Shown here one piece after another: positions 22,165 through 40,381 of a stretch of DNA of 64,000 nt (positions within the stretch are counted from its first letter, which is position 1; each line of letters starts with the position of its first letter). This DNA comes from Micromonospora sp. WMMA1363. Its GTDB lineage: Bacteria; Actinomycetota; Actinomycetes; Mycobacteriales; Micromonosporaceae. Both the position numbers and the translations under genes were made by a program. Location of the stretch: NCBI RefSeq assembly GCF_030345795.1, contig NZ_JAUALB010000001.1, forward strand, positions 1,483,001 to 1,547,000. Direction: 5' to 3'. The notes under the pieces were generated by a model that did no database searches, was not told the DNA's origin, and saw nothing but the letters and a program-made list of their open reading frames with translations.

Positions 22165-22707
22165 TCAGCCGCGCTCGAGCGGAATCTCGAAGGCGGTGAC
22201 CATGTAGCCCATCAACGAGTACAGCCCACACAGGGCGACCACCTCGACGATGCCAGCGGTGCCGTGCGCGGCCACGAACCGATCCTGCACGTCCCCCGGG
22301 ACCGGCCGCGCGGCGACAACGGCATCGACCACCTCCAGCGCAGCCCGCGTCGCGTCGGGAAGATCGTCGGGGATCTCGCCGGACGCCAGCCGGTCGATCG
22401 TGGTGGGACTGACGCCGGCGAGCCGGGCCGGCCGTTGGTGGTGTGACCACTCGTAGGAGAGGCCGCAGCGCCGTGCGAACCGGAGGATGACGAGTTCCCG
22501 CACGTCGTCGGGGAGAGTCGCATGGAACCGTAGGTGTTCGCCGAGTGCGCCGACCTTGACGGCCACCCCGGGATTGTTGAACATCCGCACGTAGACGTCC
22601 CCGAGCGTAGCCCGGCCGTCGGCGTGGGCCCGCGCGTCAGCCATACGCTCGTAGGCGGCACGGTCGTCACCCCGCAGGCGCTCCGTCGGGTCAGGCAACG
22701 TCGCCAT
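22165..22707 (-). CDS. carboxymuconolactone decarboxylase (CMD) family protein
   Basis: The 180-residue helical protein carries the CMD core VRELVILRFARRCGLSYEWSHHQRPARLAGVS (E-W-x-x-H-x-x-x-A near residues 85-95). It has no CxxC pair, so AhpD-type peroxidase chemistry is unlikely. ATG 22707 overlaps the stop of the ThDP enzyme upstream (ATGA). The two were one operon before the IS insertion. The reaction is unknown. Confidence 0.78.
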   Translation of the reverse strand: MATLPDPTERLRGDDRAAYERMADARAHADGRATLGDVYVRMFNNPGVAVKVGALGEHLRFHATLPDDVRELVILRFARRCGLSYEWSHHQRPARLAGVSPTTIDRLASGEIPDDLPDATRAALEVVDAVVAARPVPGDVQDRFVAAHGTAGIVEVVALCGLYSLMGYMVTAFEIPLERG

Positions 22708-24350
22708 CAGTCGTTGTCCTCCCACTCCTGCTGGCGCTCCCGCCAGACCCCGGCCGGGGTCGGGTAGGTCTTGTCGATGACGAGGTCGATGAGGTACGGC
22801 CCCGACGCGGCGAGCCCCCGGGCAACGGCCGCCGCGATCTGTCCCGGCTGCTCGACCCGCTCCCCGTCGGCGCCCACCGAGCGGGCGAATCCCACCCAGT
22901 CGATGCCCGGAATGTCGGTCAGCCGTTCCGCGCCCGGACCGATCTTGGATGCGCGGTACCAGATGTTGCCGTAGGCACGGTTGTTCATCACGGCGACGAC
23001 AACAGGGATTCGCTCACGACTCGCGGTGTGCAGCTCCATACCGTGCATCAACAGGCATCCGTCGCCGGTGGCGATCAACATCGGCTGCCCCGGCCGGGCC
23101 AGCTTGGCCCCGATGCCGAGCGGGATGGCACCCCCCATCGGTCCGAGGTTGGTGAGGGAGAAGTGGGTGCCGGGCTGGCGGATGTTCCAGTACTCGGCGA
23201 ACCAGGCGCGGTGGGCACCCGAGTCCACACACAGCACGGCGTCGTCGGGAAAGGCGGCCCGCAACTCCGCCACCACCCGAGCCGGGTGCATCGGTATCGC
23301 GTCGCTGCGGGTGTCCTCCGGACGGTACCGGGCGTCCCCGCCGGCCCGCACCCGCTGAAGTAGCGCGTGCCTGGCGTCGCGTCCCGCCGCCAGGCCCGGC
23401 GCGTCCCGCACGGTCGCAAGGCGCTGGAACACCTCGGCGGGATTGCTGACCACGGCCAGGTCGCACGGCCAGGTACGACTGATCGGCGCCGGGCGGCTGT
23501 CGATCTGGACGAGCGCGCGGGACGGCAGCATGGCCGGGTCCCACTGCAACGTGTCACGCTGCGACAGGCCCGAACCGACCACGACGAGGACGTCGACGTC
23601 GCCCGAGCGGATAGCGTCGATCGCCCACCGGGTGCCGCCGTAGCCGAAGACGCCGAGCGCGAGCGGGTGAGTCTCGGGTAACGTGCCCTTGCCCGACAGC
23701 GTCGTAGCCACCGGCACGTCGAAACGTTCGACGAACGCCCGTAGCGTGTCGGTCGCCCCCGACTGCTGCACGCCCGGGCCGGCGAGCACGACGATCCGTC
23801 GGTTGTCGGGATCCTCAAGCAGGGTTACCAGCTTCTGGAGGGCCTGCTCGTCAATGGTCCGCGGGTGCAGCAGCGACTCGGGCAGGCGCCTTGGCTCGGC
23901 GTCCAGCTCCGCCCGCTGGACGTCGAGGGGCACCGACAGGTGGGCCGGGGTCCGCTCGGTCATGACGTGGGTGATCGCGCGTCGTAGGTGTTGGGGAACG
24001 ACCCGGCGCGACGACAGCGACAGCGACATCCCGGTCACCGGCCGCAGCACGTCGAGGTCGTCGAGTGCCGCGCCCGACGCGTCCTGGAAGCCGCCCATGC
24101 CCTCCCACGAGCGAGGCACCTCGCCGCTGATGACGATCACCGAGCTGCGGTCGGCCTTCGCTCCGGCGAGCGCGGTGGCCATGTTGAGCACACCGGGACC
24201 GCCGATGCCCAGGCAAAGTCCGATGCCGCCGGAGGCGCGGGCGTAGCCGTCTGCCATGTATGCGGCACCGCCCTCGAACGCTGCCACGATCGCACGTAGG
24301 CCCGCGGTCTCGGTGAGCGGTGAGCTTCCCCCGCTTTGCTGGAGCGGTGG

Positions 24351-25277
24351 TTACCTGCTGCCGGCTGGCGCAGGGGTGGCGATAGGTGGTTCGGCTGGTT
24401 GCCTCTGGTGGGTGTGCCAGGCGGTCTCGTACTCGTTCGGGCTGAGGTAGCCCAGTTCCTTCTGGATGCGGCGGGTGTTGTACCAGCCGTCGATGTAGGC
24501 GAAGATCGCGTTCTCGGCCTCGTCGCGGGTCCGCCAGCTCGTGCGGTAGACGAGTTCGATCTTCAGCGTCGACCAGAAATTCTCCATCAGGGCGTTGTCG
24601 TAGCTGTCGCCGACGGAGCCCATCGAGGGCAGGATCCCGTTGTCCTGTAAGCGTTCCGCGAACCGGAACGATGTGTAGTTCGACCCGCGATCTGAGTGGT
24701 GGATCAACTGGCCGTCGCGGACGTCGCGCGACCAGATGCCGTATTCGAGGGCGGCGAGGATCAGGTCGGTGTCGCAGCGGTTGGAGGTCTTCCAGCCGAC
24801 GATTCGGCGGGAGAAGACGTCGCGGACCGCGGCGAGCCAGAACACGCCTTCGCCGCAGGGGATGCGGGTGGCGTCGGCGACCCAGAGCCGGTTCGGCCCG
24901 GTGGCGGTGAACTGCCGCCCGACAAGGTCCGGCGCCGGTGTGTGCCGTGGGTCCTGCCGCGTGGAGCCGCCGCGCCAGCCGCGGCGCAGGAACGCGCCCT
25001 GCCAGCCCTGCTGCGTCATCAGCCGCTCGACGCGTTTGCGACCCACGTAGATGCCGTCGCGGCGTAGCTGGCGGTGGACCCGGTCCGCGCCGTAGGTGCG
25101 CCCGGAGGTCTCCCAGATCTCGTGAATGTTGGAGATCAGGCCCAGGTCGACCACGTCGCGGTCGCAGGGCGCCTCGGCCTGCTTGACCCACGCGTAGTAG
25201 GTCGAAGCGCCGATGTTCAGGACCCGTAGCAGGAGCGCGACCGCGAACTGGTCACGGTGTTCATCAATGAACGTCAT
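24351..25277 (-). CDS. IS3-family transposase OrfB (integrase core)
   Basis: The 308-residue DDE transposase has an HTH_21-like N-terminus (YGADRVHRQLRRDGIYVGRKRVERLM) and an rve core with the triad Asp in WVADATRI, Asp in IHHSDRGSNYTS and Glu in ALMENFWSTLK. Its ATG (25277) overlaps the orfA stop as ATGA, so coupling rather than the usual -1 frameshift fusion may supply it. The frame is intact. Confidence 0.92.
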   Translation of the reverse strand: MTFIDEHRDQFAVALLLRVLNIGASTYYAWVKQAEAPCDRDVVDLGLISNIHEIWETSGRTYGADRVHRQLRRDGIYVGRKRVERLMTQQGWQGAFLRRGWRGGSTRQDPRHTPAPDLVGRQFTATGPNRLWVADATRIPCGEGVFWLAAVRDVFSRRIVGWKTSNRCDTDLILAALEYGIWSRDVRDGQLIHHSDRGSNYTSFRFAERLQDNGILPSMGSVGDSYDNALMENFWSTLKIELVYRTSWRTRDEAENAIFAYIDGWYNTRRIQKELGYLSPNEYETAWHTHQRQPAEPPIATPAPAGSR

Positions 25278-25953: not shown

Positions 25954-27287
25954 GTCCCTATGGGTTTTGTCAAGCCGCGAGGCGGGGTTCGTCCGCCGGT
26001 TTCGGCTGGTATGGGGTCTTGGTGCGCAGCATGGCGTGTAGGACGTCGACGCGGCGTCGGGCGAGGCAGATGAGGGCGGCGTTGTGTTTCTTGCCCTCGG
26101 CGCGTTTCCGGTCGTAGTAGGTGCGGCTGGTCGGGTCGGTCAGGGCGGCGAACGCGGACAGGAAGAACGCGCGTTTGAGCTGCTTGTTGCCGCCCTTGGG
26201 TGGGTGCTCGCCGCGGATGCTGGTGCCGGAGCGGCGGGTGACTGGGGCCAGGCCGGCGTAGGCGGCGAGGTGGCCGGAGGTGGGGAAGGTGGTGCCGTCG
26301 CCGACTTCGAGCAGGATGCGGGCTGCGGTCCTGACGCCGATGCCGGGCATCGAGGTCAGGACCCCGGCAAGAGGGTGCGCATCAAGCATCCCCTCAACCT
26401 GTTCGGCGACTTGGTCACGCTGGTGCAGCAGGTCACGCAGGTTGTCAGCCAGTCGCGGCAGGACGGTCTCGGCCGCCGCGGTGCCAGGCACGACGACGGT
26501 CTGCGCGTCGAGCGCGGTGAGGATCTGCGCGACCAGGCGTACGCCTATGCGTGGCGCACGCTTCTTGACCATCTCGACCAGTTTCGTCCGGCCGGCCTTG
26601 CGCAGCCCGGCTGGTCCACCGCACTGCGACAGCAGCTCCAGCACGGCTGGATGCTGCAGTTTCGGGCCCAGGACCCGCTCCAGCGGCGGGTGGATCTGGG
26701 TGAGCAGACCACGAATCCGGTTGGAGATCCGGGTGACCTCGCCGGCGAGGTCGTCGTCGTAGCCGACCAGGACTTCCAGCTCAGCGAGGGCGTCGTCGCC
26801 GGCGTCGACGCGGCGCAGCGTGTGCGGCAGGGTGCGGGCGGCGTCGGCGATCACGTAGGCGTCGCGGGCGTCGGTCTTCGCGGTGCCGGGGTGCAGGTCG
26901 GCCAGTCGGCGCATGACCAGGCCGGGCAGGTAGGCCACCTGATGCCCACACACGCGCGGGCCACCGCCACGGGCAGCGCGCCGATCGATGCGGGCTGGTC
27001 GACCACCATCAGGACCCGGCCGTGCCGGGCGAGCTTGTCGAACAGTTTCCGCAGGCCGGCCTCGGTATTGGGCAGCGTAGCGTCGTGCAGCCGCTTCCCT
27101 TCCGGGGTTAGCGCGACCGCATGGTGTCCTTCCTTGCCGACATCCAGTCCGATAAAGACGCCGTACTCGTCGTACAACGCTGTGCCTCCCCAACTGCTAC
27201 CGTGGCTCGGCCGCTGGTCAGCGTCGGACTGCCGGCATCCACGTTACGAAGAGACCTACCCCGCACGCGGGGCGGCCGGGTCCCTAT
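25954..27287 (-). mobile_element. IS110-family element (approximate ends)
   Basis: The transposase gene is flanked by direct copies of gtccctat (25954-25961 and 27280-27287) and lacks clear terminal inverted repeats, as is usual for IS110 elements, which insert at short core sequences. The exact ends are inferred. The region 27178-27290 upstream of the transposase is where IS110-group elements encode their bridge RNA. Confidence 0.55.
25970..27177 (-). pseudogene. IS110-family transposase, frameshifted
   Basis: The N-terminal DEDD domain (YGVFIGLDVGKEGHHAVALT ... VVDQPASIGALPVAVARA) and the rest (GHQVAYLPGLVMRRLADLHPGTAKTDARDAYVIADAA ... MPGIGVRTAARILLEVGD ... RRSGTSIRGEHPPKGGNK with the catalytic Ser region) are in different frames. 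A 2-base expansion of a GT run near 26947-26953 explains the shift; repaired length is 401 residues. The start is TTG 27177 with GGGGAGG 7 bases before it. The element is probably inactive unless the shift is a sequencing error. Confidence 0.85.
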
Positions 27288-33840: not shown

Positions 33841-34584
33841 TCAGATCGCGCCGCCGTTGGCGTACAGCACCTGGCCGTTGATCCAACGGGCCGGGCCGGC
33901 CAGGAACGCCACCAGCTCGGCGATGTCCTGCGGGGTGCCGATGCGCTCCAGCGGCGGCTCGGCGGCCATCCGGGCCAGCGTCTGCTCATCCTTGCCCTCG
34001 AGGAACAGGGCCGTCGCGGTCGGGCCGGGCGCCACCGCGTTCACCGTCACGTCCCGGCCCCGCAGCTCGCGGGCGAGGATCAGGGTGATCGCCGAGACGG
34101 CGCCCTTGCTCGCCGAGTAGGCGCTGTAGCCGGGGCGGGCGAAGCGGGTGAGCGAGCTGGAGAAGTTGATGATGGCGCCACCGGGGCGTACCCGACGGGC
34201 GGCCTGTTGGTCGACGGCGAAGGTTCCACGCACGTTGACCCTTAGCATGCGGTCGAGCTGATCCAGGTCGAGTTCGGCCAGCGGCGCCAGGGTCATCATG
34301 CCCGCGGCGTGCACCACCACGTCGACGCCGCCGAACTCCCGCTCGGCGGCGTCGAAGAGGCCGGCCACCGACGTCTCGTCGGCCACGTCGGCGGCGACCG
34401 CGATCGCCTTGCCGCCGGCCTCCCGGGCCGCCCGCACCGCGGCCTCCGCCTCGGTCTGGTTGCCGCGGTAGTTCACGACGACGGCGTACCGGTCGGACGC
34501 GAGCCGTTCGACGACCTCACGACCGATGCCCCGGGAGCCGCCGGTGACGATCGCGACCCGCGTCGCGTTGGTCGAGGTGGTCAT
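33841..34584 (-). CDS. SDR family oxidoreductase (3-oxoacyl-ACP reductase-like)
   Basis: The 247-residue protein has VTGGSRGIGREV (11-22), AAG in VVHAAGMM, FSSS (near 143), YSASKGA (YxxxK, near 157) and a C-terminal NGQVLYANGG typical of classical SDRs. ATG 34584 with AAGGAGA 9 bases before it is preferred over the upstream frame. It is divergent from a TetR gene with an 86-bp shared promoter region, the usual layout for a TetR-controlled SDR. Confidence 0.88.
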   Translation of the reverse strand: MTTSTNATRVAIVTGGSRGIGREVVERLASDRYAVVVNYRGNQTEAEAAVRAAREAGGKAIAVAADVADETSVAGLFDAAEREFGGVDVVVHAAGMMTLAPLAELDLDQLDRMLRVNVRGTFAVDQQAARRVRPGGAIINFSSSLTRFARPGYSAYSASKGAVSAITLILARELRGRDVTVNAVAPGPTATALFLEGKDEQTLARMAAEPPLERIGTPQDIAELVAFLAGPARWINGQVLYANGGAI

Positions 34585-34617
34585 GGGATGTCTCCTTGAT
34601 CTCGCTGTTCTTGTACG

Positions 34618-34670: not shown

Positions 34671-35279
34671 GTGACCGAGCTCACGCCAAACGCCGACCGG
34701 CCACCCCGTCGTGGTCGTGGCCGCCGCCCCGCCGACCAGGTCCGGGCAGAGATCCTCACCGCCGCCGGGAACCTCCTGCTGGCCGAGGGAATGGCCGGCT
34801 TCACCATCGAAAAGGTCGCGTCCCACTCGGGGGCCAGCCGGATGACGATCTACAAGTGGTGGCCCTCCAAGGGCGCGCTCGCCCTGGACGGCTACTTCAC
34901 CGTCCTCGCGCCCACCCTGGCCTTCCCCGACACCGGCGACATCATGGCCGACCTCACCAGCCAACTTGTCACCTTCGTCCACCTGGTCCGCGACACCCCC
35001 GCCGGACGGGTCATCAGCCAGCTCATCGCCCAGGCGCAGACCGACCCGGAACTGGCCGCCGCCTACCGCCGGCGCTACTCCGGGCCGCGCCGGGCCCTCG
35101 CCGTAGAGGCCCTGAACCGAGCCGTCGCCCGGGGACAGCTCCGCGCCGACATCGATCCCGAGTCCGTCGTCGACCAGCTCTGGGGCGCCTGCTACCACCG
35201 GCTACTCATCCCCGACCAGCCCCTCACGGAAGACTTCGCCCGGACGCTGGTCGACAACCTCGCTCGTGGGCTGAGCTGA
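34671..35279 (+). CDS. TetR family transcriptional regulator
   Basis: The 202-residue repressor has a basic N-terminus (PPRRGRGRRPADQVR), an HTH (FTIEKVASHSGASRMTIYKWWPSKGAL) and a TetR_C-like helical domain. GTG 34671 is 10 bases after TATAAT, giving a very short leader. It probably controls the divergent SDR gene and itself. Confidence 0.88.
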   Translation: MTELTPNADRPPRRGRGRRPADQVRAEILTAAGNLLLAEGMAGFTIEKVASHSGASRMTIYKWWPSKGALALDGYFTVLAPTLAFPDTGDIMADLTSQLVTFVHLVRDTPAGRVISQLIAQAQTDPELAAAYRRRYSGPRRALAVEALNRAVARGQLRADIDPESVVDQLWGACYHRLLIPDQPLTEDFARTLVDNLARGLS

Positions 35280-35313: not shown

Positions 35314-35356
35314 GGAGACTGGCCCGGACACAACACCGGTATCCGGGCCAGTCTCC
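35314..35356. terminator. bidirectional hairpin terminator
   Basis: Perfect 15-bp arms (35314-35328 and 35342-35356) with a 13-base loop lie between the converging tetR and the KAS III-like gene. Confidence 0.78.
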
Positions 35357-35440: not shown

Positions 35441-36463
35441 CTAGCCACGCCCCTTCCATCGGATCGCCGCCGCGCCGGCGTAGTCGCCGGCGTGAGCGAA
35501 CCCGCCGAGAACAACCAGCGCACCATCAGGCACCTGACCAGTGGTGGCGGCATCGTCCAAGGTGATCGGCATCGCCGCGCCAAAGAGGTTGCCGAACCGG
35601 TCGAAGGTGTCCGGATGGCGCTCCGCAGGCAACCCGAGCGCCTCGCGCCAGGTGCGCAGGAACGTCCTGTTTGGCTGGTTCGTGATCAGAACATCGATGT
35701 CGGCACCGGTGGCGCCCACCTCCCGGCACACGTCCAGAACCACATCGGGTACCAGGCGGTTGCCCCGTTCCAGGACAGCGGCGACGCCGTCCTCCGAGAA
35801 GCCGACACGCGGCTGCGCGTCGCCGGCCTCCCAGTATCTGCGGCCGTCCTCGCGCTCCAGCCGCATCTGCCCGGCGTACGCCGTCAGATGATGTGCCCGC
35901 AGACCCAGCACTGGGGAGCCGCTGGAACCGGTGGTCAGGTAGGCGACCCCGCAGCCGTCGCCGGGTATCGCCGCCTGGGCGAGGCCGCGTACCCGGGACT
36001 GGGTGAACAACTGGCCGGCCGTGGTCTGCCCGTTGCAGATCAGCGCCCGCCGCGCGTCGGTCGTACCGAGGATCTGCCGGGCAAGCTGCAGCATGTGCAC
36101 GAAGGAGGCACAACCGCCGTTGGCGACATCGATCATCCACGAGGGGCGCAGTCCCAGCCGTTGGGCTACCTCGCCCGCGGCACCGACGAACGGGATGTCC
36201 GGGAGTTGGCTGTGCATGAGCAGGACATCCACGGCACGAATCTCGTCCCGGCCCCACCGATCGACGAGCGACGCGACAGCGCCTTCCACCAGGTCGACAT
36301 TGGTCTCGCCCTCGGCGACATGGTGTCGTAGCGGCGGAACCTTGAACATCGGGCCGTCCCTGAGCTGGTCCTGCGCACCCGGATACTCGGTGAAGAACGA
36401 CGCCGGCACGGGCGGCCCCGGAAGGTGGCCGGCGACATCCCGGAGCCGGACCGCCGCTGTCAT
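35441..36463 (-). CDS. KAS III-like (FabH/thiolase-fold) enzyme with altered active site
   Basis: The 340-residue thiolase-fold protein has the nucleophile Cys118 in VANGGCASF and the Asn292 region (RFGNLFGAAMP) of 3-oxoacyl-ACP synthase III. The conserved His motif (usually HQAN) reads TNQPN at 261-265, so the His is replaced by Asn262. A decarboxylative Claisen reaction is therefore doubtful; acyl transfer to a small molecule, as in CerJ/ChlB3-type enzymes, is an alternative. ATG 36463 overlaps the SRPBCC stop (ATGA). It is the last gene of a four-gene operon with a ThDP enzyme. Confidence 0.8.
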   Translation of the reverse strand: MTAAVRLRDVAGHLPGPPVPASFFTEYPGAQDQLRDGPMFKVPPLRHHVAEGETNVDLVEGAVASLVDRWGRDEIRAVDVLLMHSQLPDIPFVGAAGEVAQRLGLRPSWMIDVANGGCASFVHMLQLARQILGTTDARRALICNGQTTAGQLFTQSRVRGLAQAAIPGDGCGVAYLTTGSSGSPVLGLRAHHLTAYAGQMRLEREDGRRYWEAGDAQPRVGFSEDGVAAVLERGNRLVPDVVLDVCREVGATGADIDVLITNQPNRTFLRTWREALGLPAERHPDTFDRFGNLFGAAMPITLDDAATTGQVPDGALVVLGGFAHAGDYAGAAAIRWKGRG

Positions 36464-37116
36464 GGCGTTCCCACCTGCGCGGGCGCCGGCACGTTGATCG
36501 CGAGGCCGTTTCGGTGCCGGTGCTCCAGGATCGCCCTCAGGTTGCCCATTTCGATGGTGTGCCCGGCGTAGAAGAGGTCCCAGAAGTCGCCGACCCAGGG
36601 CCGCTCCGGGGTGGGCGCGAGCGAGGGGTGCGGGTTACGGTCGTAGTGCGGGTGGCGGCAGTTGGTCCAGGTGATCAGCGAGCCGGACCGGCCAAGCACC
36701 AACGATGCCGGCACGACTCGCATAAGGTAGATCATCCATAGCGTTTCGCCCTGGTCCCAGGCGCAGTGGTAGTCCACGGTCATGGCATCGGCGTTGGCCT
36801 CCACCCGGCAGAAGATGCGGGTGTCCGGAGCGAGCCGGTCGAAGCCCCACCAGAGCCCTGGCGTGCTGGTGGGGGCGAATCCACGCAGGCTGAATGTCCA
36901 CTCCTCCAGGTGGTGACCCTGCCGCAGGTAGTCGAAGGCCGCCTCCGGCGGGCAGTCGACGTGTTGGTGGATCGTGCAGTATGTGCCGTACACCTGCTGA
37001 TGCGGATAGGACTCGCGGGTCATCCGGGTGCATTGGGCGGTAACGTCGGCCGGGGTCGTGGTCTCCACCCGGATCAGGCCGGAGATGTCAGCCAACGTGG
37101 ACGGCACGGTCGTCAT
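36460..37116 (-). CDS. SRPBCC-family protein, unknown function
   Basis: The 218-residue protein has a START-like layout: an N-terminal strand (TYCTIHQHVDCPPEAAFDYL), a sheet rich in Trp (HHLEEWTFSLRGF, WWGFDRL), and a C-terminal helix (HTIEMGNLRAILEHR). It may bind or cyclise a hydrophobic intermediate. AGGAG lies 6 bases before ATG 37116; its start overlaps the end of the ThDP gene by 29 bases and its end overlaps the KAS III-like start. No named family recognised with confidence. Confidence 0.65.
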   Translation of the reverse strand: MTTVPSTLADISGLIRVETTTPADVTAQCTRMTRESYPHQQVYGTYCTIHQHVDCPPEAAFDYLRQGHHLEEWTFSLRGFAPTSTPGLWWGFDRLAPDTRIFCRVEANADAMTVDYHCAWDQGETLWMIYLMRVVPASLVLGRSGSLITWTNCRHPHYDRNPHPSLAPTPERPWVGDFWDLFYAGHTIEMGNLRAILEHRHRNGLAINVPAPAQVGTP

Positions 37117-38794
37117 GTTCGCGCTCCTGGTTGTCGACGGGTGCCTGGCCGGCGGCCAGGAACGGGCGGAACGGCGGCAGTTCAGCGGGATCGAAGTCCA
37201 TGGCCACGAGAGCGGGACCACCGCCGGCCTGACCGGCCAGCAGAGCGGCGCGCAGCTGAGGTGCGGAGGTCGCGTGGGTCGCCGGAAGTCCCGGAAACAT
37301 CGCGGACGCACCGGCGGCGATGTTGGACGGTCGGAAGGTATTGATACCGCTGGCACCGTCCTGGTAAAGGTCCTCGCGGGTGACGCACATGGCGTGCGCG
37401 TTGTTGTTGAAGATCACGAAGGTGACGGGAGCGGTGGTCTCCAGGGCGGTGTGCACCTCCGTGCCGTGTGCGTAGAACGCACCGTCTCCCGCCAGGACGT
37501 ACGTCCGTCGTCCGGTGGCCAGCGCCGCGCCGATCCCCGCGCCGAAGGTGTAGCCCATGCCGCCCATTCCCGTCGCCACCACGAAACGTCCCCGAGGAGC
37601 GGGCGACAGCAGGTGGATCGCGGCTGCACCCGCGTTGCCGGCGTCGACGAAGACGTGGACGTCGGGAGGCAGGACGGAGGAGATCACGTGGAGGGCGTCG
37701 GCGTATTCTGCCAGCGTCTCCCCGGACGACCGCGTGCCGGACAGCAGGGCCGGCCCGTGGTGGGGCGGACGTGGCCGACGATGGGGGCCCAAGCGCAGCG
37801 ACAGGGCGCGCAGTGTCGGTCGTGGAGAACCGGTCAGTGCCAGGCCGGGGATGTACGGTGGCTCGGGGTCAACGCAGATCACCGGGGTCCCCGCCAGCGC
37901 CTCTTCCAGTCCACCCCGCGCCAGGACGGGCAACCGGGTGCCCGCCAGCAGGCACACGTCGGCTCGCCGCAGTAGTTCGGCGACGGTGTCGTGCCCCATC
38001 ACCCCGGCGACACCAGCGAATGCCGGGTGGCGATTGTCGAAGGCGTCCCTGGCGTCCGGGGTGACCGCCACCCACGCGCCGAGCCGTCCCACCAAACGGC
38101 CCAGTTCCCGCTGGGCACCGGACGAGGCCACGCCCTCGCCGGCGATGACCAGCACCTGCCGTGCCTCGCGAAGCAGGGCCGTCGCCTGGTCCAGGGTCGA
38201 CGACGGCGCCTCGGTGGCCGGCACCGGGACGGTGGCGACGCCGGCCGAGGGAGCCTCGACCAGTGCCTGCTGCACGTCCTTGGGTAGCAACAGCACCGCC
38301 GGCCCCTTCGGCTCCTGGCACGCCGCGGAGATCGCCTCGGCCAGGGCGACGTCGATGCTGGCCGGGTCGTCCACCCGGGCACAGAACCAGGAGACGGGCT
38401 CGAACACCGCCCGGGCGTCGAACGAGCCCGCCAGACCGCTCGAGTCCTGGAAAGCCCCACGCCCCTCCTGGGCCGTGGGTGGTTGGCCGACCAACGCCAA
38501 CATCGGCACCCGCGAGGCGTACGCCTCTGCCAGCCCAGGCACCAGATTCATCGCGCCGCCCCCGGAGGTCGCCGCCACCACGCCGAGGCGACCGGTGACG
38601 CGGGCTGCCCCATCGGCCATGGTGGCGGCGGAGAACTCGTGCTTGGCCACGACACCACACGTCGCGCCGTCGGTGCCGCGTAGCGCCTCGTACAGGTCCT
38701 CGATGTTCGCACCGCTGACACCGAAGACATGGCGGACACCCGTCCGGGCCAGCGCCGCGGCGATCCGGTCCACGACGCGTACTGGGCCCGTCAC
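37088..38794 (-). CDS. ThDP-dependent decarboxylase/synthase
   Basis: The 568-residue three-domain ThDP enzyme has VRHVFGVSGANIEDLYEAL, catalytic Glu in VVAKHEFSAATMADGAAR, a middle domain, and the cofactor motif GDGAFYAHGTEVH...FNNNAH. The family includes acetolactate synthase, 2-oxoacid and phosphonopyruvate decarboxylases; no residue set singles out one. GTG 38794 overlaps the AraC stop (GTGA). It is translated with the SRPBCC and KAS III-like genes, so its product (an aldehyde, acyloin or acyl unit) probably feeds them. Confidence 0.85.
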   Translation of the reverse strand: MTGPVRVVDRIAAALARTGVRHVFGVSGANIEDLYEALRGTDGATCGVVAKHEFSAATMADGAARVTGRLGVVAATSGGGAMNLVPGLAEAYASRVPMLALVGQPPTAQEGRGAFQDSSGLAGSFDARAVFEPVSWFCARVDDPASIDVALAEAISAACQEPKGPAVLLLPKDVQQALVEAPSAGVATVPVPATEAPSSTLDQATALLREARQVLVIAGEGVASSGAQRELGRLVGRLGAWVAVTPDARDAFDNRHPAFAGVAGVMGHDTVAELLRRADVCLLAGTRLPVLARGGLEEALAGTPVICVDPEPPYIPGLALTGSPRPTLRALSLRLGPHRRPRPPHHGPALLSGTRSSGETLAEYADALHVISSVLPPDVHVFVDAGNAGAAAIHLLSPAPRGRFVVATGMGGMGYTFGAGIGAALATGRRTYVLAGDGAFYAHGTEVHTALETTAPVTFVIFNNNAHAMCVTREDLYQDGASGINTFRPSNIAAGASAMFPGLPATHATSAPQLRAALLAGQAGGGPALVAMDFDPAELPPFRPFLAAGQAPVDNQEREHDDRAVHVG

Positions 38795-39813
38795 GCCCGG
38801 CTCCCCGCGGCGACGGGCGGCTCGATCAGCAGACCGGCCGGCGACAGGACCTGGAATCGTTGCCGATAGGCGCCAGGCGTCAGGCCCACCGCCCGATCGA
38901 ACGTCCGTAGGAACGTCTCCACCCGGCCGAAGCCGCATCGGCGGGCGATCTGGCTGATGGACAGGTCGGTGCTCTCCAACAGTTCCCGGGCTCGGCTGAC
39001 GCGCGTCTGGACAACGTACTGTCCGGGTGTCATGCCGACCTCTCGCCGGAAGACCCGGGAGAAGTTCCGCGGGCTCATGTGCGCCCGCTCGGCGAGTTCC
39101 GGCACCGCGAGTGGGTGGTCGACGTGGGCCCGCACCCACTCTTGGGCCGCCCGGATCGGCACCCGGTCAGCCAGTTGCGCGTCCAGCATGCCGCTGAACT
39201 GTGGCTGGCCGCCGTCGCGTTTGAAGAAGAGCACCAGATAGCGAGCGATCTCCAAGGCGAACTCCGCGCCGTGGTCGGCCTCCACCAGCGCCAGGGCCAT
39301 GTCGATTCCCGCAGACACTCCCGCCGAGGTCACGTAGGGCCCATCCCAGATGAAGATGGGTCCGGGGTCGACGGTCACCGCCGGATACCGGCGGGCCATG
39401 TCCTGGCAGTATGCCCAGTGCGTGGTTGCCCGGCGGCCGTCGAGCAGCCCAGCCTCGGCCAACAGGAACGACCCGCCGCATACCGACGTGACCCGCCGCG
39501 CCCGTTCCGCGGCCCGCCGGATCCAGCGCAGCAGGTCTTGGTCGGCGAGCGCTTGGCCCAGCCCCCAGCCGCCCGGGACCAGCAGGTTGTCCATCCGCCC
39601 CTCGCCTGTCTCCAACGGCGCGGCCTCGATCATCAGGCCCGCGGAGGTACGCACCAGGGGGGCGGCCGCCGAGACGTACTCGATCCGGTATCCCGCCTCC
39701 GGGTCTGGCAGGAACCGGTTCACGGTGTCGAATACCTCGACCGGGCCGGTGACATCCAGTGCCTGGACTTCGGGATAGACCACTACAACAACTCGTCGTC
39801 TTGCCACGATCAC
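38791..39813 (-). CDS. GlxA-type regulator (DJ-1/PfpI domain plus AraC HTH)
   Basis: The 340-residue protein joins a DJ-1/PfpI-like domain (VVVVVYPEVQALDVTGPVEVF, VTSVCGGSFLLAEAGLLDGRRATTHW) to a C-terminal AraC double HTH (AVPELAERAHMSPRNFSRVFRRE, then ISQIARRCGFGRVETFLRTF). The Cys in SVCGGSF sits where GlxA-type proteins have theirs. It is the first gene of the operon and probably its activator. The start is uncertain: GTG 39813 or 39807, with weak ribosome sites. Confidence 0.87.
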   Translation of the reverse strand: MIVARRRVVVVVYPEVQALDVTGPVEVFDTVNRFLPDPEAGYRIEYVSAAAPLVRTSAGLMIEAAPLETGEGRMDNLLVPGGWGLGQALADQDLLRWIRRAAERARRVTSVCGGSFLLAEAGLLDGRRATTHWAYCQDMARRYPAVTVDPGPIFIWDGPYVTSAGVSAGIDMALALVEADHGAEFALEIARYLVLFFKRDGGQPQFSGMLDAQLADRVPIRAAQEWVRAHVDHPLAVPELAERAHMSPRNFSRVFRREVGMTPGQYVVQTRVSRARELLESTDLSISQIARRCGFGRVETFLRTFDRAVGLTPGAYRQRFQVLSPAGLLIEPPVAAGSRA

Positions 39814-39843
39814 AGCCTGTATTCCGACCCTGGATGGCGGCAA

Positions 39844-40381
39844 CGACAGACTCTTGACGATTTCGGCCAGGAGCCGAGGTGACTGCCGACCAACGCTCTC
39901 GCCGACTTCTCGGCGGCCGTCGAGAACCAGCGCTGGCCTACACGAACGCAGCCGGTCGCCGCGGTCGCCTGTCGACGCGGGCGGTTAGGCCGGCGCCCCG
40001 ACGGGCTGCAGTGCCCAGGCCTCGGCCGGAGACACGGCGGCGGCGGGTTTCCGGGCCGGCGGGTCGACGCGGGGGCGGACGTCTGCCTGCGCGTCGACAC
40101 GGGGGCCGGACGGTCTGGGTGAACACCGACGACGGTGACACCAAGGTCCGACGGGCACGATAGGCGGCCCTCAACGATCAGGTACTCGTCCGCGGCGGCG
40201 ACAGTCCTGGCGGGATCAGGTTGGGCTTCGTCCGTAGTGATCACCCCTCCATCTTTCACACCTCCTGCGAGTCATCTTCCGAAATTGCGCTATATGTTCC
40301 TCATGTCCGTCTAGCGTGAGGTTAATCCGCTTTCACCGTCGCTGAGGTGGGGGCGTCATCGCGCATGAAGGGGTAGGTGGA
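39844..40381. other. long intergenic region, no confident gene
   Basis: An open frame on the minus strand from about GTG 40247 begins plausibly (VITTDEAQPDPARTVAAADEYLIVEG), with GGAGGG beside its start, but turns into Arg/Pro-rich text after about 55 residues and runs into the regulator start region. It is unassigned. The stretch 40260-40340 is AT-rich for this genome and probably holds the promoter of the beta-helix gene. Confidence 0.35.

What the first reader, a model, noticed from the sequence alone, without database searches (positions are those of the whole stretch)
35441..39813. Four-gene coupled operon: GlxA/AraC regulator, ThDP enzyme, SRPBCC protein, KAS III-like enzyme
Every junction overlaps (GTGA at 38791-38794, a 29-base overlap at 37088-37116, ATGA at 36460-36463), so the four proteins are made together. 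A ThDP enzyme could supply an aldehyde, acyloin or activated acyl unit, the SRPBCC protein could bind or cyclise it, and the KAS III-like enzyme could transfer or condense an acyl group. I know of no described pathway with exactly this set. There is no ACP, ketoreductase or acyl-CoA ligase nearby, which suggests a very small biosynthetic or signalling-molecule system.
Basis: partly seen in the sequence, partly recalled or inferred. Interest (0 to 1): 0.72.

Follow-up and report, generated by a model that had tools for sequence, protein, structure and literature searches.

The report
Divergent carbazole-type biosynthesis operon in actinobacteria
Four overlapping genes form a small operon whose three enzymes are distant relatives of the set that builds carbazole alkaloids in Streptomyces, but with changed catalytic residues, and which seems to belong to a widespread, little-studied branch of that chemistry.

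Summary
In detail: four overlapping minus-strand genes (AraC/DJ-1 regulator, ThDP enzyme, SRPBCC protein, KAS III-like enzyme). The claim that no described pathway has this set is wrong. The SRPBCC protein matches CqsB2, the carbazole synthase of carquinostatin biosynthesis (PDB 6ipv, E 3.3e-49). The ThDP and KAS III proteins match the CqsB3- and CqsB1-type proteins of a fetched cluster (35% and 25%). It is nevertheless not a plain member. In 123 of 130 related loci, this one included, the KAS III catalytic His is Asn (Cys-Asn-Asn) and CqsB2's Glu105 is Asp. The 4 carquinostatin-type loci have His and Glu; 3 could not be read in full. No carrier protein was found in the window. The four-gene order recurs in 22 other loci, with overlaps and an upstream promoter/operator block. 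The three enzymes without the regulator occur in many Mycobacterium genomes, mostly near an ECF sigma/anti-sigma pair and nearly always next to a CqsB7-type aminotransferase. Best reading: an aromatic 2-keto acid, probably indole-3-pyruvate, is joined to pyruvate, acylated and cyclised to a carbazole-like catechol/quinone. Product, substrate and acyl donor are inferred.

The parts
38791..39813 (-). AraC-type regulator with DJ-1/PfpI N-terminal domain (GlxA/FtrA/AdpA-like architecture); probable true start 39807
   Evidence: PF01965 1.4e-25, PF12833 8.7e-26; same gene first in the 22 relatives with the four-gene order; start
37088..38794 (-). ThDP-dependent acetolactate-synthase-like enzyme, CqsB3/NzsH-like
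   Evidence: PF02776/PF00205/PF02775; 35% identity to the CqsB3-type protein of L146; best solved relatives BbmA chains, E about 1.5e-50
36460..37116 (-). SRPBCC (Bet v1-like) cyclase, CqsB2/NzsI-like
   Evidence: PDB 6ipv CqsB2 E 3.3e-49; four of five published active-site residues kept, E105 is D93; AF2 model pLDDT 88.7, best PDB fold match 6ipv, TM 0.69 but rmsd 15.7 over 204 columns
35441..36463 (-). KAS III-like condensing enzyme, CqsB1/NzsJ-like, with Cys118-Asn262-Asn292 instead of Cys-His-Asn
   Evidence: PF08541 1.5e-19; 25% identity to the CqsB1-type protein of L146; Asn262 aligned with the His of FabH and of the CqsB1-type protein; AF2 pLDDT 91.4, KAS III/PqsBC folds
39835..39869 (-). 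conserved operator-like block TGGCNGNAWTCGTCANNANNCNGTCNTTGCNGCCA upstream of the regulator gene
   Evidence: 0-5 mismatches of 26 specified positions in the 23 loci, against 9-14 for the best match in a more distant stretch of each (the pattern was drawn from these loci); alignment; one match in the window and one with up to 3 mismatches in the whole genome
39811..39821 (-). -10-like TACAGG (39821-39816) followed two bases later by the first GTG; spacing suggests a leaderless mRNA starting near the second GTG (39807)
   Evidence: conserved in the 23-locus alignment; the promoter reading is inference
35314..35356 (.). perfect 15-base inverted repeat between the operon end and the convergent TetR gene, possible terminator for both
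   Evidence: read directly from the sequence: arms 35314-35328 and 35342-35356

Best explanation
The operon is a minimal, probably self-regulated biosynthetic unit of the carbazole type, from a divergent branch (here 'clade II'). An AraC/DJ-1 regulator probably controls its own promoter and hence all four genes. [quoted passage not shown] The KAS III-like enzyme loads an acyl group on Cys118 and joins it to that acid with loss of CO2. The SRPBCC cyclase folds the unstable product into a new aromatic ring, giving a carbazole-like catechol or ortho-quinone. Shown: homology of all three enzymes, gene order, conservation, active-site differences, and no carrier-protein match in the window. Inferred: the regulation, every chemical step, the indole substrate and the nature of the acyl donor (primary-metabolism acyl-ACP or acyl-CoA).
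For: CqsB2 is the only solved relative of the SRPBCC protein at E 0.001 (E 3.3e-49), and CqsB2's Y144, Y172, H206 and E209 are kept. The ThDP and KAS III proteins match the CqsB3- and CqsB1-type proteins of a fetched cluster whose cyclase is 98% identical to CqsB2. KAS III matches the CqsB1-type protein better than the second KAS III of the same clusters (104 against 68, 100 against 66 and 105 against 84 bits in L146, L147 and L148; L149 showed no second one). The steps assigned to CqsB1, CqsB2 and CqsB3 are in PMC7466098 (parts 1-3 of 5 read). A HisC-like aminotransferase family, 51% identical to the CqsB7-type one, is found within 6 kb of the cyclase in 7 of 23 four-gene loci, 47 of 49 Mycobacterium-titled loci, 6 of 15 other clade II loci and 4 of 4 carquinostatin-type loci. 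O-methyltransferases of PF01596, a family that includes catechol methyltransferases (recalled), sit near the trio in L041 and L046. Order, overlaps and promoter block are conserved.
Against: Identity to the carquinostatin-type proteins is modest (KAS III 24-28%, ThDP 35-38%, cyclase 39-41%). Two catalytic residues differ in all 123 clade II loci in which both proteins were read, and nearly fixed differences lie beside the ThDP catalytic Glu (H52 and F54, 81 of 82 rows each), so substrate and step may differ. The window has no aminotransferase of this family within 6 kb of the cyclase (the best in the genome is 44% identical and about 2.1 Mb away) and no carrier-protein match. I found no metabolite assigned to a clade II cluster in the papers searched.
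Confidence: 0.6

Rival explanations
1. Same three-step logic on another aromatic 2-keto acid (phenylpyruvate, 4-hydroxyphenylpyruvate or imidazolepyruvate), so the product is a different bicyclic or tricyclic aromatic and not a carbazole.
For: Nearly fixed substitutions next to the ThDP catalytic Glu (H52, F54 against R, D) and in the cyclase (P57, D93, H117, L131; 122 to 125 of 125 rows) separate clade II from the four carquinostatin-type loci. The accompanying aminotransferase is named histidinol-phosphate transaminase by its best model.
Against: The CqsB7-type aminotransferase of a carquinostatin-type cluster is itself of this HisC-like group, 51% identical. Indole C2 is nucleophilic enough for the known cyclisation, a plain phenyl ring is not (general chemistry, recalled).
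Confidence: 0.22
2. The KAS III without its catalytic His is an acyltransferase, not a carbon-carbon condensing enzyme. It esterifies or thio-acylates the ThDP product, and the SRPBCC protein acts as binding or isomerising protein. The product is an acyloin ester or small signal.
For: Cys-Asn-Asn in 123 of 127 loci where the three positions were read, against Cys-His-Asn in 4 of 127. KAS III-like enzymes catalyse varied reactions (RkD, PqsD, CURS1, CerJ, PtmR named in PMC7466098; that CerJ is an acyltransferase is recalled). The CqsB1 product turned spontaneously into indole-containing esters (same review).
Against: Asn can still donate a hydrogen bond, and beta-keto acids lose CO2 easily, so condensation remains possible (inference). 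The cyclase keeps four of five catalytic residues, which a mere binder would not need.
Confidence: 0.15
3. A catabolic or detoxifying operon in which the ThDP enzyme cleaves a keto acid and the KAS III acts as a thiolase-like enzyme.
For: ThDP and KAS III folds include degradative relatives (general knowledge).
Against: The cyclase homology to CqsB2 and the conserved pairing with homologues of the other carquinostatin enzymes and with the aminotransferase.
Confidence: 0.03

Closest known systems
Carquinostatin/neocarazostatin carbazole module (CqsB1-CqsB2-CqsB3; NzsJ-NzsI-NzsH), Streptomyces
   Same: Homologous KAS III-like, SRPBCC cyclase and ThDP enzymes side by side; best fold match of the cyclase model; four of five cyclase active-site residues; HisC-like aminotransferase in many relatives
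   Different: Gene order ThDP-cyclase-KAS III instead of KAS III-cyclase-ThDP; KAS III Asn for His; cyclase Asp for Glu105; no carrier protein found in the window; own AraC/DJ-1 regulator; 24-41% identity
chlocarbazomycin cluster chlCz (Streptomyces tubbatahanensis, PMC10100901, passages)
   Same: Published set of NzsH, NzsJ and NzsI homologues plus aminotransferase
   Different: Has a carrier protein gene and tailoring genes; its sequences were not compared here
BbmA (PDB 8x3x, 8xod; ThDP enzyme)
   Same: Closest solved ThDP enzyme to the window protein (E about 1.5e-50)
   Different: Its pathway (bacillimidazole) is recalled and comes from no call; its partners were not examined
AdpA/GlxA/FtrA-type regulators
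   Same: DJ-1/PfpI plus AraC HTH architecture; FtrA is the best NCBIfam match, below its cut-off; operator block begins TGGC
   Different: Target site and ligand untested; the AdpA consensus is recalled, not from a call

Membership tests
Carbazole-forming module CqsB1-3/NzsJ-I-H | ThDP enzyme homologous to CqsB3/NzsH with catalytic Glu | tested here: met
   35% identity over nearly the whole length; E53 kept in 82 of 82 readable clade II rows (4 more had a gap) and 4 of 4 carquinostatin-type rows
Carbazole-forming module CqsB1-3/NzsJ-I-H | SRPBCC cyclase homologous to CqsB2 | tested here: met
   E 3.3e-49 to 6ipv; best fold match 6ipv
Carbazole-forming module CqsB1-3/NzsJ-I-H | Cyclase residues E105, Y144, Y172, H206, E209 (from PMC7466098) | tested here: not met
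   4 of 5 identical, E105 is Asp, a conservative change
Carbazole-forming module CqsB1-3/NzsJ-I-H | KAS III-like enzyme with Cys-His-Asn (present in 4 of 4 fetched carquinostatin-type loci) | tested here: not met
   Cys118-Asn262-Asn292
Carbazole-forming module CqsB1-3/NzsJ-I-H | Dedicated carrier protein (CqsB6/NzsE) in the cluster | tested here: not met
   None of 44 PF00550 matches in the genome lies in the window. Weak as a criterion: my seed scan found a carrier protein in only 3 of the 4 carquinostatin-type loci, not in L149
Carbazole-forming module CqsB1-3/NzsJ-I-H | CqsB7-type aminotransferase in the cluster | tested here: not met
   None within 6 kb in the window; found in 7 of the 23 four-gene loci (the window is among the 16 without) and in 4 of 4 carquinostatin-type loci
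Carbazole-forming module CqsB1-3/NzsJ-I-H | Product is a carbazole | not testable with these tools
   needs expression or enzyme assays

The most novel reading that the evidence does not exclude
Clade II is an unreported and widespread branch of carbazole-type biosynthesis, commoner than the known one (20 against 4 of the 24 Streptomyces genomes with a match, of 295 searched), with a His-less condensing enzyme. It makes a small redox-active aromatic metabolite in many actinobacteria: as a stand-alone regulated four-gene operon in Micromonosporaceae, Streptomyces, Kitasatospora and relatives, and in many Mycobacterium genomes as part of a sigma/anti-sigma (SigL/RslA-like) locus, where oxidative signals could switch it on. 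It may also account for mono-oxygenated carbazoles, part of whose machinery was called unidentified in 2020 (PMC7466098).
Probability: 0.3. Interest if true: 0.85.

Novelty: new variant of a known kind. Interest (0 to 1): 0.6.

Why it matters
Bacterial carbazoles are described as potential antioxidants (PMC7466098), and few of their pathways have been worked out. This operon points to a second branch of the same machinery, at least as widespread in the genomes sampled, with a different catalytic triad. Only three enzymes and a regulator are conserved in it, which makes it easy to test. It also predicts an unrecognised aromatic metabolite in many mycobacteria, encoded beside a sigma/anti-sigma pair; the anti-sigma factor RslA of what looks like the same locus in M. 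tuberculosis is redox-sensitive (PMC2877774, title and abstract start in a listing).

Tried and rejected
Rejected: a pathway of unknown type (the CqsB2 match settles the kind). Rejected: chance neighbours (22 further loci with the exact order). Set aside: the nearby SDR/TetR pair as part of the system. The SDR matches only distant opposite-strand ORFs in L031 and L033 and weakly in L020 of 22 relatives, the TetR protein none; those two SDR matches had formed a shared family, so it is not wholly without counterpart. A first carrier-protein scan by motif missed its own positive controls and was replaced by phmmer with two seeds and a Pfam search of the window's own genome. One search, over 87 clade II and 4 carquinostatin-type loci, found carrier-protein matches in 3 of the 4 latter (not L149), next to the trio in L051, and weak or distant ones in L035, L037 and L028; with two seeds it could miss divergent ones. 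A lead on zigralone, a Micromonospora quinolone with a ThDP enzyme (PMC13307353, part 1 of 3 read), is a different pathway. PMC12247030 and PMC12141560 held nothing on this (term finds only). Other papers seen: PMC10100901, PMC13002591 and PMC6917791 passages; PMC9822442 abstract and outline. The statement that clade II is unreported rests on searches of an open-access library; subscription papers, including the original CqsB2 and NzsJ papers, were not seen. The review itself reports the NzsJ/I/H trio in Streptomyces cattleya, Sorangium cellulosum and Scytonema tolypothrichoides; which branch those belong to was not tested.

Caveats on counts: the genome-contig scan used peptide patterns (DYHCAWD and YPH[DQ][EQ]V[FY]G) that fit clade II and not CqsB2, so its 497 relatives (of 520 stretches; 80 kept) say nothing about the ratio of the two branches. 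Less biased is the CqsB2 query in 295 Streptomyces genomes: 24 had a match, 4 of the carquinostatin type (70-98%) and 20 at 42-46%. All 20 read Asp/Asn: 19 directly and one (L127) through L016, the same copy. Rows dropped before the count of 130: second fetches of the same place (L001-L007, L094-L096, L112, L120-L123, L127, L150), aminotransferase loci (L114-L119) and two short fragments of a second copy in one genome (L144, L145). Some of the 130 may still be near-duplicates (L040 and L139 are identical in the tree), and the two residue changes lie on one branch, so their co-segregation is one event. The neighbour families come from mechanical ORF picks and can miss or misname genes.
Full report
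Observation. The four ORFs and all three overlaps are exactly as described. Pfam names the first an AraC regulator with a DJ-1/PfpI domain, the second a complete three-domain ThDP enzyme and the fourth a KAS III-like protein. The third only grazes PF10604 and has no NCBIfam match at E 0.01. A perfect 15-base inverted repeat (35314-35328 and 35342-35356) lies between the operon and the convergent TetR gene (read).

What it is. A sequence search of solved structures gives one significant relative for the third protein: CqsB2, E 3.3e-49. The review PMC7466098 (parts 1-3 of 5 read) describes CqsB2 as the carbazole synthase of carquinostatin biosynthesis. In that account the ThDP enzyme CqsB3 joins indole-3-pyruvate to pyruvate. 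[quoted passage not shown] CqsB2 closes the ring without a cofactor, and aminotransferase CqsB7 supplies indole-3-pyruvate. The same three activities are NzsH, NzsJ and NzsI in neocarazostatin biosynthesis. So the window's enzyme set matches a characterised module in kind.

Reference clusters. A CqsB2 query over 295 Streptomyces genomes (the genus is that of the S. naganishii locus L016) found 24 with a match. Four are 70-98% identical to CqsB2; their surroundings were fetched as L146-L149. L146 reads as a carquinostatin-type cluster: KAS III-like, cyclase, ThDP, phytoene-synthase-like protein, second KAS III, carrier protein, HisC-like aminotransferase and isomerase (names assigned by me from the review and by eye, apart from the matches). 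L149 showed neither a second KAS III nor a carrier protein in these scans. Against these four, the window proteins are 24-28% (KAS III), 39-41% (cyclase) and 35-38% (ThDP) identical.

The difference. The cyclase keeps Y144, Y172, H206 and E209 of CqsB2 but has Asp for E105 (numbering checked). The KAS III keeps Cys118 and Asn292 but has Asn262 where FabH and the CqsB1-type protein have His. In 2 the KAS III could not be read (L047, L152) and 1 is broken (L013). No fully read locus is mixed; the 123 include loci of Myxococcota and an Oligoflexia bin. On a quick tree of cyclase plus KAS III for 43 loci, the two types lie on opposite sides of a long branch with SH-aLRT 100, so the two changes are one evolutionary step and not independent evidence. 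Other nearly fixed differences exist, among them H52 and F54 beside the ThDP catalytic Glu (81 of 82 rows each). Structure predictions are confident (KAS III pLDDT 91.4, cyclase 88.7). The best PDB fold matches are FabH/PqsBC for the KAS III and CqsB2 6ipv for the cyclase (E 1e-19, TM 0.69, but rmsd 15.7 over 204 columns, perhaps through the N-terminal arm).

Conservation of the operon. Of 80 named loci kept from genome contigs, 22 (L014-L035; Streptomyces, Streptantibioticus, Kitasatospora, Streptacidiphilus, Actinoplanes, Couchioplanes, Planosporangium and one record titled Saccharothrix) carry all four genes in the same order, the regulator being 61-75% identical. The other 58, and the 6 unnamed loci L008-L013, have no regulator match at E 1e-10. 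No other gene family is shared by most of these loci: besides the operon the widest is an aminotransferase (below), and the flanks are otherwise shared by three loci at most, with three Streptantibioticus/Streptomyces loci (L014, L018, L019) sharing theirs. The window falls with the sampled four-gene loci, and five unnamed Streptomyces loci not tested for the regulator, in a set of 15 with SH-aLRT 99. The 80 bases before the regulator gene are conserved (45 of 80 columns at 65% or more, against 30 of 140 further upstream). A 35-base block there has 0-5 mismatches of 26 specified positions in the 23 loci, against 9-14 in a more distant stretch, and occurs once in the window's genome. Its layout suggests an operator next to a promoter and a leaderless mRNA; that is inference. 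Among 101 genomes (the window's own and its relatives), 6 have the cyclase gene, including the window's own and one other of the same genus. That one (L008) belongs to another sub-branch, lacks the regulator and has a ThDP gene without its N-terminal part and with a frame change. The distribution is patchy.

Missing and shared parts. No carrier-protein domain match lies in the window: 44 PF00550 matches in the genome, none inside. A HisC-like aminotransferase family (51% to the CqsB7-type protein of L146) is found within 6 kb of the cyclase in 7 of 23 four-gene loci, 47 of 49 Mycobacterium-titled loci, 6 of 15 other clade II loci and 4 of 4 carquinostatin-type loci; the window is without. Near some other clade II trios there are O-methyltransferases, P450s and flavin enzymes. 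This ties the module to an amino-acid-derived 2-keto acid and is compatible with a catechol-type product.

Mycobacterium. In the class-wide search (394 genomes, 28 with a match) 18 of the 25 genomes of group g8 that are listed have the cyclase gene (the list is cut). I take g8 for Mycobacterium because three of four g8 loci tested align over thousands of bases at about 80-94% with Mycobacterium-titled loci. In 49 Mycobacterium/Mycolicibacterium-titled loci an ECF sigma gene lies upstream of the trio in 37, an anti-sigma gene in 39 (directly upstream in 28) and secY in 36; a MarR gene lies downstream in 36. The one sigma protein tested passes the cut-off of NF007227, and the one anti-sigma protein tested matches an anti-sigma model below its cut-off. 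The name SigL/RslA-like rests on synteny: PMC13002591 (passages) places the MarR gene rv0737 near sigL-rslA in M. tuberculosis and reports that the MarR protein binds that promoter; the terms acetolactate, ketoacyl and aminotransferase do not occur in its main text. PMC2877774 (title and abstract start in a listing) describes redox sensitivity of RslA. Whether M. tuberculosis lacks the trio was not tested.

Mechanism and confidence. [quoted passage not shown] Homology and conservation are shown; all chemistry is inferred. By the membership test it is not a plain member of the CqsB/Nzs module (His, Glu105, carrier protein and aminotransferase tests not met, the carrier-protein test being weak), but it very probably works like one.

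Noticed in passing
L042-L093, e.g. L064:6978-12700: In most Mycobacterium-titled loci the ThDP-cyclase-KAS III trio plus aminotransferase sits downstream of an ECF sigma/anti-sigma pair (near secY-adk-map) and upstream of a MarR gene; this resembles the sigL-rslA-rv0737 region of M. tuberculosis.
   Followed up: partly
window 22707-24287 and 24351-25277: A second acetolactate-synthase-like ThDP gene that lacks about 45 N-terminal residues relative to the models, directly beside an IS3 transposase gene; possibly cut by the element. An IS110 transposase gene lies at 25970-27193.
   Followed up: no
window 33841-34593 and 34671-35279: Short-chain reductase gene divergent from a TetR gene just past the operon; reductase matches only far from the operon in L031, L033 and weakly L020.
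   Followed up: partly
L051:10001-18428: Actinophytocola locus with cyclase, P450s, ThDP, KAS III, an adjacent carrier protein and an HMG-CoA-synthase-like gene: a clade II cluster with its own carrier protein.
   Followed up: no
L013 and L008: Decayed copies: L013 has fragments of all three enzyme genes; L008 has a ThDP gene without its N-terminal part and with a frame change.
   Followed up: no
L061:5190-6863: A carotenoid-oxygenase-like ORF fused in frame to an anti-sigma-like N-terminus beside the mycobacterial trio (judged by eye).
   Followed up: no
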